NCBI GenBank assembly: GCA_027624855.1
Contig: JAQBTQ010000017.1
Coordinates: forward strand, 1 to 49,529
DNA from: Bacteroidota bacterium
GTDB lineage: Bacteria > Bacteroidota > Bacteroidia > Flavobacteriales_D > Sanyastnellaceae
Length of the DNA: 49,529 nt
Reading direction: 5' to 3'
Position 1 is the stretch's first letter; each line of letters starts with the position of its first letter. The position numbers and the translations under genes are program-made. The notes beneath the pieces were generated by a model that searched no databases, was not told the DNA's origin, and was given only the letters and a program-made list of their open reading frames with translations. This document shows, piece by piece, positions 26,999 to 34,582 of this stretch.

Positions 26999-27790
26999 CT
27001 AGGCTTTTTGAGCTCCTTTGAGTGCGTGAATCTCCGCCCGCAATGAATCCAATGTGCCCTGAATTCGTTCCATTCCAGAAAAAGCGGGCGTTGGCCAATT
27101 AAACGCCAAATATCCTCGTGCTCTCCAAACTTCAACAATGGCACTCGGGGCCACTGGATAAGGCGGGTAATCCGGATTATCAGAAATGAGCAAAAAATCC
27201 TTGTGCTCTGTATCCAACCGATTTTCGACTCGCTTAAATACCACCCCTTCGTCTCGTGTCACAATGATATACGGGCGCATCCCTCCTGCTCGGTACCAAT
27301 CTTCTTCAAAGGTGCTGAGGATGTAGCTTTTACTCGGAATGGGAAGCATGCTCTCACCCTCAATTTGAAACAATCTATGGGTAAGATTTGGCGTCACTTC
27401 AGGCAACGGAAGGCCAAAAGTGGGTAAAGATTCCAAGAATTCCGGATCTCCATATCCCTCCATGTATCCCGCCGCCGCCTTAACGGGGACGACCGCGACC
27501 CTTTCTTCATCCGTCGAACCGTCCACAGGCACTGCCAGTACACGCATGGTTTGACCCCTTAACCGAGAATCCTCGGATTCCTCTCCTTTCAGAAGTTCAT
27601 CTACAGACACTCCAAAAAAATCAGCAAAGGCCACCACATTGACGAGCCTGGGTTCAGCACGACCTTCTTCATAAGCCCCTAAAGCAGCGCGCTTCAATCC
27701 CAATCGATCTGCTAATTCTTGTTGGGTCATGCCTCGGTCCTTTCGCAGAGACTTGAGGCGCTGAGCAAAGTGAGGGAGTGGTTCAGGCAT
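26999..27790 (-). CDS. XRE-family repressor with S24 (LexA-like) autocleavage domain
   Basis: A 263-residue transcription factor. Residues about 8-68 form a helix-turn-helix (LKSLRKDRGMTQQELADRLG, then ALGAYEEGRAEPRL). The C-terminal half is an S24 peptidase: the scissile Ala107-Gly108 lies in VPVKAAAGYMEG, the nucleophile is Ser147 in EGESMLP, and the general base is Lys186 in VVFKRV. All parts needed for RecA-stimulated self-cleavage are therefore present. A C-terminal tail of about 35 residues ends in a helix (LDSLRAEIHALKGAQ). Its own promoter contains the inverted repeat TTGCT-N9-AGCAA, also found before dinB downstream. It therefore probably acts as the local SOS-type repressor of itself and of the dinB-SRAP-dnaE2 operon. 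Confidence 0.88.
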   Translation of the reverse strand: MPEPLPHFAQRLKSLRKDRGMTQQELADRLGLKRAALGAYEEGRAEPRLVNVVAFADFFGVSVDELLKGEESEDSRLRGQTMRVLAVPVDGSTDEERVAVVPVKAAAGYMEGYGDPEFLESLPTFGLPLPEVTPNLTHRLFQIEGESMLPIPSKSYILSTFEEDWYRAGGMRPYIIVTRDEGVVFKRVENRLDTEHKDFLLISDNPDYPPYPVAPSAIVEVWRARGYLAFNWPTPAFSGMERIQGTLDSLRAEIHALKGAQKA

Positions 27791-27797
27791 GGTATCA

Positions 27798-27819
27798 ATT
27801 TGCTAACAAAAATAGCAAT
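27798..27819 (-). promoter_or_regulatory. Putative SOS-type operator overlapping the repressor promoter
   Basis: The inverted repeat TTGCT-N9-AGCAA is perfect (inward it extends to TTGCTA-N7-TAGCAA). It starts 8 bases upstream of the repressor ATG. The -7 element TATTTTTG (27807-27814, minus strand) lies between the half-sites, so a bound dimer would block RNA polymerase. Read in the direction of transcription, 16 of 22 positions match the site before dinB. Confidence 0.65.
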
Positions 27820-27870
27820 GCCATGGGAAAGAGGAAAATTCCAAGGGCTGAACTATCTTGTATGTTCCAA

Positions 27871-29316
27871 ATGAACACGATGATGCGTGAGGTTTTGCAC
27901 TGCGGAATGGGGTTTCTGCTGGCCATCTATGTTGTTGTTCCGCTTCAAGCACAACAATATTTTGGTTGGGCTCAACACCTCGTGCATTGTCCTCATGAAT
28001 CTTGTGCCGGTGGCCTTCAAGGCATTCCAGTGGATGCGCATTCGCACATTGGGGCTCCTGCTTGGTACCATGCTGAGGCCCCTCGTAATTCAACCATCAT
28101 TGTAAACTACAACGGGTTTCCGGAAGAAGCCATCATCGCCTTTGATCATGCAGTCGATATCTGGTCCGTAGTGGTTGAGTCTGAAATCACCATTCGAATC
28201 GATGCCCACTGGGAAGACCTCGGGTCAAACGCTTTGGCACAGGCAGCCCCGACCAATTTGTTCGAAAACTTCATCAACGCGCCATTTGAAGACACGTACT
28301 ATGCATCCGCATTGGCAGATGCTCTTGCAAACGAGGACTTGTCTGAGCAATCAGACCTGAATTGCTCCTTCAATAGTACCGCGAATTGGTACTTTGGCAC
28401 CGACGGAAACACGCCTGCCGGCACCTATGATTTTGTAACAGCAGCATTGCATGAGATTGCACACGGGCTGGGGTTCATCGGAAGTGCATACTACATTGAT
28501 GGATTTGGATTCATCGGCACTGCGAATACCCCTTATCCCTACGATCATTTCACAGAAACCCAAGATTCTATCGCCTTATTGGATTTGCCGAATGGATCTC
28601 AAACCCTTGGAGATGCGCTGACTTCAAACCAAATTTATTGGAATGGTACTGGTGGTATGGAAGGAGTGGGAGGTGGAAGGCCGCGCATTTATGCCCCTGC
28701 GAATTATGGGGTGGGCTCCAGTTATTCTCATTTAAATGAGTCAACATATTCTGCCGGTTCGCCAAACAGCCTCATGACCCCTGGGCTCAACACGGCCGAA
28801 TCCAATCATGATCCTGGTCCTGCGCTATTGGGTATGTTTCAAGACATGGGATGGAGCATCGGAACTTGCCAAATTCTGGAAGTGGAAATTGGCGAGCAAA
28901 GTCCTTGTAATTCGAATACCGATGGCTACAATCAAACGATTATCCTCTCGTTTCAATCCGCACCGAGCTCCGGTCTGATTGATGTAAATGGAGGGCTTTA
29001 TTCATTGTCGGAAAGCCCGAAGACCATTGTTCTATCTGGACTCCCCTCAAATGGATTGTCCGTAGATCTTGAGATCTTCTTTACCGCTGACCCGGATTGT
29101 CAAACGTTCATTCCGGAGGCTTTTGTGGCACCGGTCTCCTGCTATTGCCTCACGGACTTAAGCGGTAATGGGCTAACCGATGTGCAAGACGTATTGTTAC
29201 TCTTAGCGGATTTTGGTTGTTTGAGTGGATGTAGTGGAGACGTAACAGGGGACGGTGCCAGCAATGTGGAAGATGTATTGTCGGTCTTGGCAGCCTTTGG
29301 AAGTGCTTGTCCTTAA
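27871..29316 (+). CDS. Secreted zinc metalloprotease (HExxH) with dockerin-like C-terminus
   Basis: From the ATG at 27871 the protein has 481 residues. ATGs at 27823 and 27862 are upstream alternatives, but MNTMMREVLHCGMGFLLAIY makes a natural signal peptide. The zinc motif HEIAHGLGF starts at residue 194 (His194, Glu195, His198), and SPNSLMTPG near 303 resembles the Met-turn of metzincins. The third-ligand position of HExxHxxGxxH is Gly here, so it is not a standard metzincin. The C-terminus has two calcium-loop-like repeats (DLSGNGLTDVQDVLLLLADF and DVTGDGASNVEDVLSVLAAF) with flanking cysteines, as in dockerin-type modules common in this lineage. Probably an extracellular peptidase; substrate unknown. 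A TATCTTGT box lies just before the start. Confidence 0.75.
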   Translation: MNTMMREVLHCGMGFLLAIYVVVPLQAQQYFGWAQHLVHCPHESCAGGLQGIPVDAHSHIGAPAWYHAEAPRNSTIIVNYNGFPEEAIIAFDHAVDIWSVVVESEITIRIDAHWEDLGSNALAQAAPTNLFENFINAPFEDTYYASALADALANEDLSEQSDLNCSFNSTANWYFGTDGNTPAGTYDFVTAALHEIAHGLGFIGSAYYIDGFGFIGTANTPYPYDHFTETQDSIALLDLPNGSQTLGDALTSNQIYWNGTGGMEGVGGGRPRIYAPANYGVGSSYSHLNESTYSAGSPNSLMTPGLNTAESNHDPGPALLGMFQDMGWSIGTCQILEVEIGEQSPCNSNTDGYNQTIILSFQSAPSSGLIDVNGGLYSLSESPKTIVLSGLPSNGLSVDLEIFFTADPDCQTFIPEAFVAPVSCYCLTDLSGNGLTDVQDVLLLLADFGCLSGCSGDVTGDGASNVEDVLSVLAAFGSACP

Positions 29317-29351
29317 AAAATAATTTACCCCTTTTTGCGTTTTATTTTGGC

Positions 29352-29373
29352 TTTGCTCATTATTTTAGCAAAA
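29352..29373 (+). promoter_or_regulatory. Putative SOS-type operator upstream of dinB
   Basis: The inverted repeat TTTGCT-N9-AGCAAA ends 4 bases before the dinB ATG and directly follows a possible -7 box (TATTTTGG, 29343-29350). It has the same half-sites and spacing as the site over the repressor promoter, so one protein could control both. Confidence 0.65.
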
Positions 29374-29377
29374 CGAA

Positions 29378-30610
29378 ATGACCGCGAACCCTCCATCCGC
29401 TAACCGTGCCATTCTGCACCTCGATCTCGACACTTTTTTTGTATCGGTAGAGCGGCTCATGGACCGGAGACTCCTCAACCAGCCGATTCTGATTGGCGGT
29501 ACGGGAGATCGTGGGGTCGTTGCTGCTTGCAGTTATGAAACCCGCGCATTTGGGGTGCATTCTGGCATGCCCATGCGACAGGCACGGCTCATGTGTCCGG
29601 AAGCCCTCGTCATCCGAGGAAACTCCATGAATTACATGAAGCAGTCCAAAGCTGTCACGGAAATCATCCAAGAAGCCGTTCCCGTCTGCGAAAAAACCTC
29701 CATTGACGAATTCTATGCCGACCTCAGTGGAATGGATCGGTTTTTTGGCTGTTGGCAATTCGCCAGTGAGCTACGAGACCGTGTGATCCGAGAAACCGGA
29801 TTGCCTATTTCGTTCGGCATGAGCACCAGTAAGACGGTCAGCAAAGTTGCCACCGGACAAGCCAAGCCTTCGGGCACATTGAAAATCGAACACGGTACCG
29901 AACGGCCCTTTCTTGCTCCACTGTCTGTGAGGAAAATCCCACAAGTTGGCACTCAAACCTACCAAACCCTTCGCAACCTAGGCGTCAAACGCATCCAAAC
30001 CATCCAGGAAATGCCCATCGAATTGATGGAACAAGTCCTCGGCCAGAACGGAACATCGATTTGGAGAAAAGCCCACGGCATTGACCACAGCCCTGTCATT
30101 GCATTCAACGAGCGCAAGTCCATCTCTACCGAACGCACGTTTGCCAAAGACACGACCGACGTCGAAAAACTCCGCGGCATCCTGATTGCGATGACCGAAA
30201 ACCTCGCTTATCAACTCCGTCGCGGTCAAAAACTCACCGCTTGTGTCACGGTCAAAATCCGCTATGCTGATTTCGACACACGGTCCTTGCAAGCTCGAAT
30301 TCCTTATACCTCCTCTGACCATGTGTTGATCCCCAAAGTCAAGTCCCTTTTCGAACAGCTTTACAACCGCCGTGTACAAGTTCGACTCATTGGTGTCCGT
30401 TACAGCCACCTCGTAGAAGGTGGATTTCAAATGGATCTTTTTGACGACGTTGATGAGCGGCTTGAATTGTACCGAGCGCTCGATCAAATTCGCAATCAAT
30501 ACGGTGACCGAAGTGTCGTAACAGCCGCCGGCATGGAGGCGCGCACCATTGGTCGACCCAATCCTTTTAATGGAGAAGCCCCCTTGCTTCTTGCCAACCG
30601 TCATCAGTAA
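29378..30610 (+). CDS. dinB: Y-family translesion DNA polymerase (DinB/Pol IV type)
   Basis: A 410-residue error-prone polymerase that copies past damaged bases. The catalytic motifs are intact: LHLDLDTFFVSVERLMD carries the first Asp, VVAACSYETRAFGVHSGMP follows, and TSIDEFYADLSGMD carries the second acidic pair. Helix-hairpin-helix and little-finger regions follow. A clamp-binding pentapeptide, QMDLF, is at residues 351-355, followed by an acidic DDVDERLELY. It is the first gene of a three-gene operon: the SRAP gene starts 12 bases after it and dnaE2 9 bases after that. Upstream lies an operator shared with the S24 repressor gene, which implies induction by DNA damage. Confidence 0.93.
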   Translation: MTANPPSANRAILHLDLDTFFVSVERLMDRRLLNQPILIGGTGDRGVVAACSYETRAFGVHSGMPMRQARLMCPEALVIRGNSMNYMKQSKAVTEIIQEAVPVCEKTSIDEFYADLSGMDRFFGCWQFASELRDRVIRETGLPISFGMSTSKTVSKVATGQAKPSGTLKIEHGTERPFLAPLSVRKIPQVGTQTYQTLRNLGVKRIQTIQEMPIELMEQVLGQNGTSIWRKAHGIDHSPVIAFNERKSISTERTFAKDTTDVEKLRGILIAMTENLAYQLRRGQKLTACVTVKIRYADFDTRSLQARIPYTSSDHVLIPKVKSLFEQLYNRRVQVRLIGVRYSHLVEGGFQMDLFDDVDERLELYRALDQIRNQYGDRSVVTAAGMEARTIGRPNPFNGEAPLLLANRHQ

Positions 30611-30622
30611 ATTCATCGCATC

Positions 30623-31456
30623 ATGTGTGGCCGATATGTAACCGTTTCTTCTGTTCAAACCATTGAAAAGCGCTTCCAAGTGCAAGCCACTCCGGACGTT
30701 CAAACGCAATGGCGCCCAAACGCCAATGTTTCACATGGTGAATCCGCCCCAGTCATCACGAGTGAAGCGCCACAACAGATTACCCTCCAACAATTCGGAT
30801 TCACCCCGCGATGGGCCAAAAAGCAATTCTACATGATTAACGCCCGATCTGAGGGCGATCATAACAAAGAAGATCATCCGGAATACACGGGTGCCATGGG
30901 CATTCTTCAAAAGCCCATGTTTCGACAGTCCATACGCGATCGAAGGTGCATTGTCGTTGCCGATGCCTTCATTGAAGGACCCCGACAAGAAAAACTCACC
31001 AAGCCATACCTTGTCTACGCACGACATGGTCGACGCCCTTTTGGATTGGCAGGAATTTGGGATGAGTGGATCCATCCCAATACCGGTGAAATCACCCGTT
31101 CATTTGCCATTTTGACCACAGTGGCCAATGAACTCATGCAGGCCATCGGCCACCATCGATCGCCCGTCATTCTGGATGAAAGCGAAGAACAAGCGTGGAT
31201 TGATCTCTCCACGCCTCTATCCGACATCACCCATATGCTCAGGCCTTACCCGGCAAAAAAACTGAATGCCTATCCCATTACTCCTGATATCCGAGATCCG
31301 CGAGCCAATGGCGCAGACCTCTTACAGCCGACCGGTGATCGCGTTTATCCTGAGCACACCTTTGAAATTCATCAAGGCCTCGAAATGTTTGGGATGGGGG
31401 AATCCCCCGCCCGAAGGCGGTCTTCTTCAAGAGGCACCCAAGGTTCCCTGTTTTAA
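30623..31456 (+). CDS. SRAP domain protein (YedK/HMCES type), abasic-site DNA-protein crosslinker
   Basis: A 277-residue protein of the SOS response-associated peptidase family, which covalently binds abasic sites in single-stranded DNA through Cys2. Cys2 follows the initiator Met (MCGRYV). Other family residues are present: YMINARSEG, Glu118 in VVADAFIEG, FGLAGIWDEW, FAILTTVANELMQAIGHH and the HHRSPVIL motif at 177-184. Beyond the catalytic domain is a basic C-terminal tail (RRRSSSRGT) ending exactly in QGSLF (residues 273-277), which fits the bacterial sliding-clamp-binding consensus. It lies inside the dinB-dnaE2 operon with 12- and 9-base spacers. Cytoplasmic. Confidence 0.92.
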   Translation: MCGRYVTVSSVQTIEKRFQVQATPDVQTQWRPNANVSHGESAPVITSEAPQQITLQQFGFTPRWAKKQFYMINARSEGDHNKEDHPEYTGAMGILQKPMFRQSIRDRRCIVVADAFIEGPRQEKLTKPYLVYARHGRRPFGLAGIWDEWIHPNTGEITRSFAILTTVANELMQAIGHHRSPVILDESEEQAWIDLSTPLSDITHMLRPYPAKKLNAYPITPDIRDPRANGADLLQPTGDRVYPEHTFEIHQGLEMFGMGESPARRRSSSRGTQGSLF

Positions 31457-31465
31457 TTCCCGGCC

Positions 31466-34400
31466 ATGCACTTGCATTGCCACTCTTGGTTCAGCCTGCG
31501 GTATGGGCTGATGAAACCCCGTGAACTGCTTGCTGAAGCAGAAGCTTCTGACATCTCCGCATTGGCGCTCACTGACATCAATACCACGTCAGCACATTGG
31601 GATTTTGTACGGCTCGCGCCCGAGTATGGTATTCGCCCCATTCTTGGAATCGACTTTCGCAACAAGGATGATGCAGGGACCCCTCTTTACGTAGGGTATG
31701 CTCACTCAAACGACGGGTACGCTCAATTATGTGATCACCTGAATGCACACCTCCATGCGCACAAGCCATTTGATTTTGACGCACCCGAAATGACCGATGT
31801 GTCGGTGGTGTATCCCTGGTCACGATGGAAACAAACCAAGCAATCACTGAAAGCCAATGAATGGATTGGCGTAAGGCCATGGGAACAAACCGAGCTTCGA
31901 CTGCTTCGCAGTTACAGCAACCACAACATTCCTTGGGATCGCCTCATTGCTTGGCACACCTTTACGTTCAGACACAAGCGCGATTGGAATTGCCATCGCA
32001 TTTTACGAGCTGTTGACGGCAATGTCTTACTCAGCAAATTGCCTCCGACCCAAACTGGCCATCCCCACGATCGGCTATTATCTCCCGCTGATTTTTATCA
32101 GGTATATGCGGAAAATCCTGAATGGATAAAACGATCCGAACAATTACTTGCGCAATGCAACATTGACCTCCCTGTCCCAAAAAAAGGAAGAAGCCACAAC
32201 AACCAGCACACCTACACCGCTTCTGAAGAGGAAGATGAGCGTTTAATTCGGTCGCTTTGCGCTGAGGGCCTTGCATACCGGTATCCCGACCACGAAGAAT
32301 CCGTGATTGAACGAATGGAAATGGAATTGGGCATCATTCGTCAACAAGGTTACCTCGCTTATTTTCTCATCAACTGGGACATTACCAGCTACGCGCGGAG
32401 TAAAGGGTATTTCTATGTAGGTCGCGGAAGCGGAGCCAATAGTTTGGTTGCCTATCTCTTGCGTATCACCGATGTTGACCCCATCGAACTGGATCTCTAT
32501 TTTGAACGATTCATCAACCTGTATCGAACCAATCCTCCTGACTTCGATATTGATTTTTCTTGGACCGATCGGGACGATGTAACCCAGTACATTTTTGATC
32601 GATTTCCCCATGTCGCCCTCGTCGGCGCATACAGCACATTTCAATTTCGTGCCGTCATTCGGGAATTGGGGAAAGTGTTCGGCTTGCCCAAACACGCCAT
32701 AGATCAGTTAGCCGACGGCAAAACCTCAGGACCCGAGGTCGACGAAATCGAAGCATGGGTGTTGCGCTACGCGGGCTACCTTCAAGACTTCCCCAATTCA
32801 CTGACCATTCACGCCTGTGGCATTCTCATCGCCGACCGCCCTTTGAATCATTTTGGAGGAACCTTTATGCCTCCAAAAGGGTTTCCAACCACCCAATTCG
32901 ACATGGTCGTAGCTGAGGATATTGGCCTGTTCAAATTCGACATTTTGAGTCAGCGTGGGCTTGGGAAAATTCGGGACACCATTGATTTAATCGCTGTTCA
33001 TCAACCAGCGGTTGCTGCCCAAATCGACATCCACGATATGGCGCGATTTAAGCGCGACCCCATCATTCAGCACTTATTAAAAGAAGCATTGGCTGTGGGG
33101 TGTTTTTACGTGGAATCCCCTGCCATGCGCATGCTCATGCGCAAATTGCAGGTCGACAATTACCTCGGACTTGTCGCGGCAAGCTCCGTCATTCGTCCCG
33201 GCGTGTCTCGCAGCGGCATGATGCGAGCTTACATTGAGCGACATCGCCATCCAGAACGGCGAGACGACGCGCATCCTGTACTCTTCGAGCTCATGCCCGA
33301 GACATACGGTGTCATGGTTTATCAAGAGGACGTTATCAAAGTGGCGCACCACTTTGCCGGGTTGGATTTGGGCGAAGCCGACGTCCTTCGAAGAGGAATG
33401 AGTGGAAAATTCCGATCGCGAGAAGAGTTTGCCAAAGCGCGTGATGCATTTCACGAAAAAGCCATAAAGCGCGGAAGGGATCCCATTTTGGTTGAAGAAG
33501 TATGGCGACAGGTCGAAAGCTTTGCAGGTTACGCTTTCGCAAAAGGACACTCCGCATCATATGCCGTTGAAAGCTATCAAAGCCTTTATCTCAAAGCACA
33601 TTGGCCATTGGAATACATGGCCGCTTGCATCAACAATTTTGGAGGGTTTTATCGAACAGAATTTTATGTTCATGAAGCACGGATGCTGGGAGGGCGTATC
33701 GAACCTCCTTGCGTCAATCGGGGAAATTGGGAGGCCTGTGTGTACCCTAACGAGGCCGCCATTGTTCTTGGGTTCAACTTGGTCCGAGGAATCCAAGCAC
33801 AAGTCATCGCCCGCATTATGAAGGAACGCCACGAACAGGGTCCCTATCAATCACTCCAAGACTTCATTGACCGGACAGGGATAGGACTGGAACAATGCTT
33901 GCTCATCATACGCTGTGGTGCGATGCGGTTCACCGATAAAAATCCACAACAACTGCAATGGGAAAGCCACTTTTTACTTGGAAACACAAAAAAAGGCTCT
34001 CACAACGTTACGCTCTTCACTCCTGACATTACGCGATTTACCCTTCCAAAATTTGAGATCAATGACCTAGAAACAGCTTTCGATCAGATCGAACTATTTG
34101 GCTTTCCATTGAGTTCGCCCTTCCGACTCCTCACGACCGAAGCCCAAACCATCGCACGCCAAGGAATACGCAGTGAAGTGCTAAATGAATGCATTGGCCA
34201 AGAAGTAGCGGTTGTTGGGTATCTCGTCACCGTCAAAGAAACCCATACCGCACAGCGCGAACGCATGTGTTTTGGTTGTTTTGTTGACATCGAAGGTCAA
34301 TGGCTCGATACCGTTCACTTCCCCCCATCACTGCGACAATACGCGTTTCGAGGACGCGGAATATATTGGATTCGGGGGCCCGTCAAAGAGGAGTTTGGTT

Positions 34401-34582
34401 GCATTCACGTTGAGGCAATGGAAATGAAAAAATTGGATTATATCGCCGATCCTCGTTATGCTGAAGACGGACTCCCAGGGAGAGAGCCACGCCCCAACAA
34501 CGCAACCGCCGCACGCCGACGCCAAACCATGGGAGCACGAAGTGGAGGTGGATTACTCAAACGCTCCCTCCGAAACCCTTGA
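31466..34582 (+). CDS. dnaE2: Error-prone DNA polymerase III alpha subunit (DnaE2 type)
   Basis: A C-family polymerase of 1038 residues, shorter than replicative DnaE. The N-terminal PHP domain starts MHLHCHSWFSLRYGLMKPRE. The palm contains RGSGANSLVAYLLRITDVDP and the catalytic aspartates in PDFDIDF (358-364). Later come GVMVYQEDVIKVAHHFAGLD, the finger motif RRGMSGKFRSREEF, and FAGYAFAKGHSASYAVESYQ. A clamp-binding-like QIELF lies at 874-878, just before an OB-fold (VAVVGYLVTVKETHTAQRER), the position where DnaE proteins carry their clamp motif. There is no tau-binding C-terminal extension; the end is a basic tail. It is the last gene of the operon, and its stop is 4 bases from that of the convergent receptor gene. 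Confidence 0.93.
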   Translation: MHLHCHSWFSLRYGLMKPRELLAEAEASDISALALTDINTTSAHWDFVRLAPEYGIRPILGIDFRNKDDAGTPLYVGYAHSNDGYAQLCDHLNAHLHAHKPFDFDAPEMTDVSVVYPWSRWKQTKQSLKANEWIGVRPWEQTELRLLRSYSNHNIPWDRLIAWHTFTFRHKRDWNCHRILRAVDGNVLLSKLPPTQTGHPHDRLLSPADFYQVYAENPEWIKRSEQLLAQCNIDLPVPKKGRSHNNQHTYTASEEEDERLIRSLCAEGLAYRYPDHEESVIERMEMELGIIRQQGYLAYFLINWDITSYARSKGYFYVGRGSGANSLVAYLLRITDVDPIELDLYFERFINLYRTNPPDFDIDFSWTDRDDVTQYIFDRFPHVALVGAYSTFQFRAVIRELGKVFGLPKHAIDQLADGKTSGPEVDEIEAWVLRYAGYLQDFPNSLTIHACGILIADRPLNHFGGTFMPPKGFPTTQFDMVVAEDIGLFKFDILSQRGLGKIRDTIDLIAVHQPAVAAQIDIHDMARFKRDPIIQHLLKEALAVGCFYVESPAMRMLMRKLQVDNYLGLVAASSVIRPGVSRSGMMRAYIERHRHPERRDDAHPVLFELMPETYGVMVYQEDVIKVAHHFAGLDLGEADVLRRGMSGKFRSREEFAKARDAFHEKAIKRGRDPILVEEVWRQVESFAGYAFAKGHSASYAVESYQSLYLKAHWPLEYMAACINNFGGFYRTEFYVHEARMLGGRIEPPCVNRGNWEACVYPNEAAIVLGFNLVRGIQAQVIARIMKERHEQGPYQSLQDFIDRTGIGLEQCLLIIRCGAMRFTDKNPQQLQWESHFLLGNTKKGSHNVTLFTPDITRFTLPKFEINDLETAFDQIELFGFPLSSPFRLLTTEAQTIARQGIRSEVLNECIGQEVAVVGYLVTVKETHTAQRERMCFGCFVDIEGQWLDTVHFPPSLRQYAFRGRGIYWIRGPVKEEFGCIHVEAMEMKKLDYIADPRYAEDGLPGREPRPNNATAARRRQTMGARSGGGLLKRSLRNP

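What the first reader, a model, noticed from the sequence alone, without database searches (positions are those of the whole stretch)
27798..29373. Shared inverted repeat links an S24 repressor to a dinB-SRAP-dnaE2 operon
TTGCT-N9-AGCAA occurs at 27798-27819 over the repressor's own promoter, with the -7 box TATTTTTG inside it, and at 29352-29373 just before the dinB ATG. Read in the direction of transcription, 16 of 22 positions agree. Each site lies 4-8 bases from its start codon. The repressor has the complete autocleavage set (Ala107-Gly108, Ser147, Lys186). This is a concrete candidate for an SOS-box-like operator and regulon in Bacteroidota, where the operator is poorly generalised.
Basis: partly seen in the sequence, partly recalled or inferred. 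Interest (0 to 1): 0.72.

Follow-up and report, generated by a model that had tools for sequence, protein, structure and literature searches.

The report
LexA-like repressor controlling mutagenic polymerase operon
A phage-type repressor in a Bacteroidota bacterium probably switches off both itself and a three-gene error-prone DNA polymerase operon through matching palindromes, as an already described family of such repressors does, while the repair gene recA seems to answer to a different switch that may be new.

Summary
Confirmed: TTGCT-N9-AGCAA lies at 27800-27818 and 29353-29371, just before the start codons of an S24 repressor and of dinB-SRAP-dnaE2, and is kept in all 12 genus loci examined for each gene (9 of 12 exact at dinB). 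The idea is largely right, but the kind is known: "non-canonical LexA" repressors of Bacteroidetes with a CTAA-N5-TTAG operator were published in 2021 (PMC8565304). Both sites match that core 7/8 in the same register; 38 of 80 related repressor genes have the perfect core upstream. This is a new member with longer arms (TTGCTAA), a drifted motif in sister genera (GCCAA-N5-TTGGC), and a regulon that looks reduced to itself plus the polymerase operon. recA is outside it: 52 of 56 family loci have another palindrome, GTAA-N5-TTAC, there, also where no full-length repressor was found. In one single-contig 4.1-Mb relative the only three exact copies of CGTAAAT-N3-TTACG-type elements lie at recA and beside a WYL regulator gene whose predicted fold is closest to DriD and PafBC. 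A second, WYL-driven DNA-damage circuit is the most novel reading; regulator, sign and inducibility are inferred.

The parts
26999..27790 (-). S24/HTH_3 repressor (non-canonical LexA type), 263 aa; Ala107-Gly108 cleavage site, Ser147/Lys186 dyad, predicted extra C-terminal helix 239-262
27800..27818 (-). operator of the repressor gene, TTGCTATTTTTGTTAGCAA read with the gene; core CTAT-N5-TTAG (7 of 8 of CTAA-N5-TTAG)
27807..27814 (-). TATTTTTG, match to the Bacteroidota -7 box TAnnTTTG (box recalled), inside the operator; pattern kept in 12 of 12 genus loci
   Evidence: no start site mapped
29353..29371 (+). operator before dinB, TTGCTCATTATTTTAGCAA; core CTCA-N5-TTAG (7 of 8)
29378..30610 (+). 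dinB-type Y-family polymerase, 410 aa, first gene of the operon
30623..31456 (+). SRAP (HMCES/YedK-like, names recalled), 277 aa, 12 bases after dinB
31466..34582 (+). dnaE2-type polymerase III alpha homologue, 1038 aa, 9 bases after SRAP
27871..29316 (+). metalloprotease-like gene between repressor and operon; not thought to be part of the system (start approximate)
   Evidence: NF038122 below cut-off

Best explanation
The repressor is a member of the Bacteroidetes S24 'non-canonical LexA' group. As a dimer it binds TTGCTAA-N5-TTAGCAA-like palindromes over its own promoter and just before dinB, keeping itself and the dinB-SRAP-dnaE2 operon low. After DNA damage RecA filaments would trigger cleavage at Ala107-Gly108, and the error-prone polymerases would be released together. 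In this genome the regulon has shrunk to about these two sites; recA is not under this repressor but under a different palindrome (GTAA-N5-TTAC). Shown here by sequence: operator identity, position, conservation, drift to a matching variant in sister genera, catalytic residues, predicted fold. Inferred: binding, repression, RecA-dependent cleavage, inducibility.
For: Genus footprint: mean top-base frequency 0.97 over the 19-base operator against 0.65 and 0.59 in the 30 bases on either side. 80 related repressor genes: perfect CTAA-N5-TTAG within 150 bases upstream in 38 (one, L278, may belong to the divergent dinB), at least 7/8 in 58; shuffles 0.4% and 9.8%; in-gene control 0 and 5 of 80. dinB promoters in genera with the repressor: 36 of 41 at least 9/10; in genera without a full-length repressor hit: 1 of 6. 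GCCAA-N5-TTGGC at dinB in 10 of 10 g10 loci and in the one g13 locus, and at the repressor gene in two g10 loci (L023, L024). Two of 14 genus genomes lack the repressor, and the same two (G077, G095; 86-87% complete) lack dinB. A107, G108, S147, K186 invariant in 20 of 20. Foldseek best hits are lambda-type repressors and LexA (whole-chain TM-scores only 0.3-0.4). Predicted C-terminal helix 239-262, the feature PMC8565304 gives as absent from LexA and CI.
Against: Neither site is a perfect 8/8 core. Pfam S24 scores 22.7, under its 23.3 cut-off. 22 of 80 relatives have 6/8 or less upstream. Of seven g10 repressor loci read, five show no site of their own and sit behind what looks by eye like the end of a NifU-like gene (L026, L028-L030; L254). 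Repressor promoters of g5, g11, g12, g13, g15 and g17 show no clear site. Five of 41 dinB promoters score under 9 (L049, L235, L256, L247, L248). G019 has no repressor hit yet carries CTAA-type sites at dinB and recA. Identity to the experimentally tested proteins was not computed: I found no way to their sequences here. No binding or expression data.
Confidence: 0.84

Rival explanations
1. The repressor governs a full SOS network including recA through weaker or diverged sites that the strict motif misses.
For: PMC8565304 describes CTAA-N5-TTAG regulons with recA, recN and ruvB. The recA palindrome GTAA-N5-TTAC has the same N5 dyad geometry.
Against: recA promoters score 8/8 for CTAA in 1 of 56 family loci (g19) and 8/8 for GTAA in 52 of 56. 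GTAA stays at recA in genera without a full-length repressor hit (g4, g8, g14, g19, g20, g21; g4 and g20 have only short HTH matches). No excess of relaxed sites in the genome.
Confidence: 0.12
2. The palindromes belong to another regulator or are RNA hairpins or attenuators; the neighbouring S24 protein is a prophage-derived repressor with its own unrelated operator.
For: One site lies 4 bases before the dinB ATG, so it could be in the leader. Arms of this type also occur inside genes.
Against: At least 7/8 of the published core stands upstream of the repressor gene in 58 of 80 relatives, and the variant GCCAA-N5-TTGGC appears at both genes in g10. In g3 the dinB site lies further upstream of the start codon. 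No prophage genes recognised by eye among the reading frames; no phage library was searched.
Confidence: 0.04

Closest known systems
Non-canonical LexA repressors of Bacteroidetes, CTAA-N5-TTAG group (PMC8565304; abstract, results and discussion sections read)
   Same: HTH_3 plus S24, Ala-Gly bond and Ser/Lys dyad, extra C-terminal helix, own promoter bearing the operator, operator before error-prone polymerases, same dyad register
   Different: Longer arms TTGCTAA/TTAGCAA, only two strong sites, recA outside, GCCAA-N5-TTGGC in sister genera (not met in the sections read; supplements and figures not seen)
Active Y-family polymerase (Bacteroidetes PolY2) with DnaE2 (PMC6511836, passages seen) and SRAP-DinB-DnaE operons (PMC3765255, passages seen)
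   Same: Polymerase and SRAP gene set; no ImuB-C among the Pfam hits of the three proteins
   Different: Here the operon's operator and repressor are tied together by sequence
UmuDAb of Acinetobacter and HdiR of Streptococcaceae (as described in PMC8565304)
   Same: S24 repressor with a small regulon of error-prone polymerases
   Different: UmuDAb clusters with UmuD, HdiR with Streptococcus phage repressors; operators not compared here
DriD (Caulobacter) and PafBC (mycobacteria), WYL activators of LexA-independent damage responses
   Same: The WYL-WCX protein beside the recA-type palindrome has DriD chains as its seven best Foldseek matches, then PafBC; the element lies at a near-fixed distance before a TTTG box, as DriD's site overlaps -35 at a fixed distance from -10 (PMC12340889, passages)
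   Different: Element CGTAAAT-N3-TTACG, not ATACGAC-N7-GTCGTAT; activation not shown

Membership tests
Bacteroidetes non-canonical LexA (PMC8565304) | N-terminal CI-type HTH_3 (PF01381) | tested here: met
   57.7 bits, cut-off 23; P22 c2 and 434 repressor domains among PDB profile hits
Bacteroidetes non-canonical LexA (PMC8565304) | S24 domain with Ala-Gly bond and Ser/Lys dyad | tested here: met
   invariant in 20 of 20; Foldseek to lambda CI and LexA; Pfam score itself just under cut-off
Bacteroidetes non-canonical LexA (PMC8565304) | Extra C-terminal helix | tested here: met
   predicted helix 239-262, prediction only; block confidence 42-80
Bacteroidetes non-canonical LexA (PMC8565304) | CTAA-N5-TTAG (or a derived palindrome of the same layout) in its own promoter | tested here: met
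   7/8 here; 38 of 80 relatives 8/8
Bacteroidetes non-canonical LexA (PMC8565304) | Sequence clade with WP_025606010.1 / WP_075324850.1 | not tested
   these proteins did not come up in the collections searched
Bacteroidetes non-canonical LexA (PMC8565304) | Specific binding and mitomycin C induction | not testable with these tools
   needs bench work
[quoted passage not shown]
   only self and polymerase operon at 1 mismatch or less; recA not included; weak sites cannot be excluded
Canonical LexA | Winged-helix LexA DNA-binding domain | tested here: not met
   HTH_3 hit, no LexA DNA-binding family among the hits
DriD/PafBC-like WYL activators (for the recA-type element) | WYL plus WCX domains and fold | tested here: met
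   PF13280 and PF25583; DriD and PafBC top in Foldseek
DriD/PafBC-like WYL activators (for the recA-type element) | ssDNA binding and activation of the promoters | not testable with these tools
   needs bench work

The most novel reading that the evidence does not exclude
Many Flavobacteriales split the DNA-damage response. A LexA-like S24 repressor keeps only itself and the mutagenic polymerases, while a DriD/PafBC-like WYL regulator controls recA, its own neighbouring genes and, in some genomes, further genes (SbcD-type nucleases, a RadA-like protein, IS1595 transposases) through CGTAAAT-N3-TTACG set 15-16 bases before a TTTG -7 box. Where the repressor is not found (G008, genus g8) the WYL-type element stands before dinB instead.
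Probability: 0.5. Interest if true: 0.75.

Novelty: new member of a known kind. Interest (0 to 1): 0.52.

Why it matters
It gives the published Bacteroidetes LexA group an operator with defined long arms in a lineage known mostly from metagenome assemblies, shows the operator variant of sister genera at both promoters, and shows an SOS regulon that looks reduced to mutagenesis. It also yields a testable proposal for who controls recA in Flavobacteriales: a WYL regulator with a near-fixed promoter layout, which would carry the mycobacterial (PafBC) and Caulobacter (DriD) type of circuit into a third phylum.

Tried and rejected
Whole-genome enrichment of the motif: none at 3 mismatches (89 against 238 reversed); rejected as a line of evidence. 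Other copies as regulon members: the five other exact copies and the four two-mismatch copies in this genome lie in reading frames of at least 100 codons, and the perfect TTGCTAATTTAATTAGCAA of G088 lies inside the dnaE2 frame. recA as a target: rejected. The recA palindrome as an S24 operator: held less likely, because it stays where no full-length repressor was found. Recognition-helix changes in A1 that would explain GCTAA to GCCAA: none evident by eye, not pursued.

WYL assignment, results on both sides: the element beside the WYL gene is exact in genus g1 (14 of 14 loci), g9 and g12 (one locus each), and by coordinates in G005, G008 and G012. By eye it is degenerate in the g3, g13 and g14 loci. 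In the 15 WYL loci read from two other families it is absent from 14; L385 has a different GTAA-N5-TTAC 453 bases upstream. Counts of CGTAA-N5-TTACG in the genus are low against the reversed control (1-3 against 2-12). In one search the count does not exceed the reversed control in 4 of 13 genomes (G129, G167, G170, G173). So that case too rests on position.

Full report
WHAT IS THERE. The window (contig C8 of a 2.29-Mb, 40-contig genome) holds, on the minus strand, a 263-aa repressor (26999-27790) and, on the plus strand, dinB (29378-30610), SRAP (30623-31456) and dnaE2 (31466-34582), with gaps of 12 and 9 bases. Pfam: HTH_3, with S24 just under its cut-off; IMS/IMS_C; SRAP; DNA_pol3_alpha/finger/PHP. 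TTGCT-N9-AGCAA occurs twice in the window, at 27800-27818 and 29353-29371 (0.08 expected). A metalloprotease-like gene lies between the two genes. The nearest titled relatives are Flavobacteriales metagenome assemblies.

IS IT CONSERVED? In 12 of 12 genus loci the repressor gene carries the operator (12 loci from the 14 genus genomes in the sample). Anchored on it, the 19 operator bases have a mean top-base frequency of 0.97, the 30 bases on either side 0.65 and 0.59, and TAnnTTTG lies within it in 12 of 12. The dinB site is TTGCTCATTATTTTAGCAA or a one-base variant in 10 of 12 loci and TTGCTACGTATTTTAGCAA in two. The same dinB site, ending in AGCAG or AGCAT, stands in 4 of 4 g3 loci. Of the 14 genus genomes the two without repressor are the two without dinB. 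Among 41 dinB promoters read from genera with the repressor, 36 score at least 9/10 for GCYAA-N5-TTRGC (2.0% of shuffles; motif defined after seeing the sites; 22 of the 41 come from two genera); among six from genera without a full-length repressor hit, one does (G019). In g10 the dinB site is GCCAA-N5-TTGGC in 10 of 10, as in the one g13 locus, and two g10 repressor promoters read GCCAATGCGCTTGGC and GCCAATTCAATTGGC. Five other g10 repressor genes read have no site of their own, and repressor promoters of g5, g11, g12, g13, g15 and g17 show none that is clear.

WHAT IT IS. PMC8565304 (abstract, results and discussion sections read; further passages; [quoted passage not shown] Our sites are CTAA-CAAAA-ATAG and CTCA-TTATT-TTAG on the plus strand, 7 of 8 each, in the same register. 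Ala107-Gly108, Ser147 and Lys186 are invariant. The predicted model (mean pLDDT 79.9, pTM 0.59) matches lambda-type repressors and LexA and has the extra C-terminal helix that the paper describes. I file it in that group; a direct comparison with the tested proteins was not made.

HOW IT WORKS (inferred). The dimer covers its own likely -7 box and a site 4 bases before the dinB start codon; RecA-dependent self-cleavage would release both. The polymerase set resembles the active Y-family plus DnaE2 pair noted for Bacteroidetes (PMC6511836, passages); SRAP in operon with DinB, in certain cases with a DnaE paralogue, is noted in PMC3765255 (passages).

WHERE THE EVIDENCE LED. recA hardly ever has a CTAA-type site: 8/8 in 1 of 56 family loci. 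It has GTAA-N5-TTAC, 8/8 in 52 of 56 family loci and 15 of 26 loci of other Flavobacteriales families within 120 bases, 0.37% in shuffles (one fetched locus, L269, dropped as too short). Two f9 loci scored as lacking it carry it just outside that span, so 17 of 17 f9 loci have it and 0 of 9 of f5, f10 and f12 within 120 bases. All 22 genus genomes have one to three exact CGTAA-N5-TTACG, 15 of them two; one copy is the recA one in each listing (compared), and where the WYL gene was read (14 of 14 genus loci) another stands 20-44 bases after the end of that WYL-WCX gene and before a small gene. In the single-contig 4.1-Mb genome G012, YGTAAATNNNTTACR occurs three times: at recA and twice at the WYL locus; in G005 likewise three of three; G008, which has no S24 hit, has it at recA, beside the WYL gene and before dinB, plus two more. 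In gene orientation TTTG follows at 15-16 bases in 35 of 66 recA loci with the element (66 of 82 read; genus g1 has TTCG at 16 in the example printed), at 15 in 14 of 16 WYL loci picked for carrying it, and at 15-16 in 13 of 18 other loci that I chose. On the reverse strand the counts at 15-16 are 0, 1 and 1, but recA loci also show TTTG at 12-13 on the reverse strand in 36, a conserved CAAA run upstream, so the strand control is not clean. Genes behind the element in those 18 loci include a metallophosphatase that I take for SbcD type (L438), one with SbcD_C just under cut-off (L441), a RadA-like protein (L447; name recalled, Pfam AAA plus ChlI), DUF2130 (L449) and three IS1595 transposases (L440, L442, L452); others have no match or are not repair genes, and one site (L448) lies inside a frame. 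The WYL model (mean pLDDT 81.7, pTM 0.55) has DriD chains as its seven best structural matches, then PafBC. DriD's site overlaps the -35 element at a fixed distance from -10 (PMC12340889, passages), and DriD and PafBC are both reported to act on recA (PMC10693628, passages). WYL homologues: 91 of 101 family genomes at E up to 0.001; of 23 other-family genomes given (of 26 with recA loci), 14 of 14 f9 at E of 1e-68 or better, f12 two weaker hits in 6, f5 0 of 2, f10 1 of 1.

AGAINST THE SECOND CIRCUIT. The element is not beside the WYL gene in 14 of 15 loci read outside family f1, and the fifteenth has an unlike copy 453 bases off. The f10 genome has the WYL gene but no recA element in the span searched. 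In 4 of 13 genomes the element is no commoner than its reversed control. PMC8565304 found recA of S. agarivorans not induced by mitomycin C; whether that recA carries the element is unknown. In P. actiniarum recA is bound by the CTAA-type LexA. Literature searches of the held library listed no paper whose title or abstract start speaks of a WYL regulator of recA in Bacteroidota; the lists were capped (20 of 648, 12 of 29, 10 of 82, 3 of 3, 12 of 83), subscription papers are mostly not held and bioRxiv preprints not at all.

VERDICT. The finding is real and well seen; its kind is known; this is a new member with what looks like a reduced regulon. The larger interest lies in the recA element it uncovered.

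Noticed in passing
G000:C7:65229-65243 (recA) and G000:C16:14679-14693 (WYL locus), outside the window: CGTAA-N5-TTACG shared by the recA promoter and the stretch after a WYL-WCX regulator gene, conserved across the genus loci read; possible LexA-independent control of recA.
   Followed up: yes
L440, L442 (G009), L452 (G124): Three IS1595-type transposase genes have the recA-type element before them, with TTTG 15-16 bases after it: transposons that may ride on a DNA-damage promoter.
   Followed up: partly
L258 (G008, dinB promoter): In a genus without an S24 repressor hit, dinB carries ATTGTAAATCCATTACAAT, the recA-type element, in place of the LexA-type operator.
   Followed up: partly
L260 and L162 (G019): CTAA-type sites at dinB and recA although no S24 repressor was found in that genome; unexplained.
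   Followed up: no
window 27871-29316: Metalloprotease-like gene (NF038122, below cut-off) with a dockerin-like repeat tail (judged by eye) between repressor and operon; similar-looking tails end just before dinB in several relatives.
   Followed up: no
L188:4602-5636 (-): Behind the WYL gene: a 92-aa protein with no Pfam match (MSIPLNP...) and a DUF6272 protein, seen in the same order in several genus loci; function unknown, candidates for the WYL regulator's targets.
   Followed up: partly
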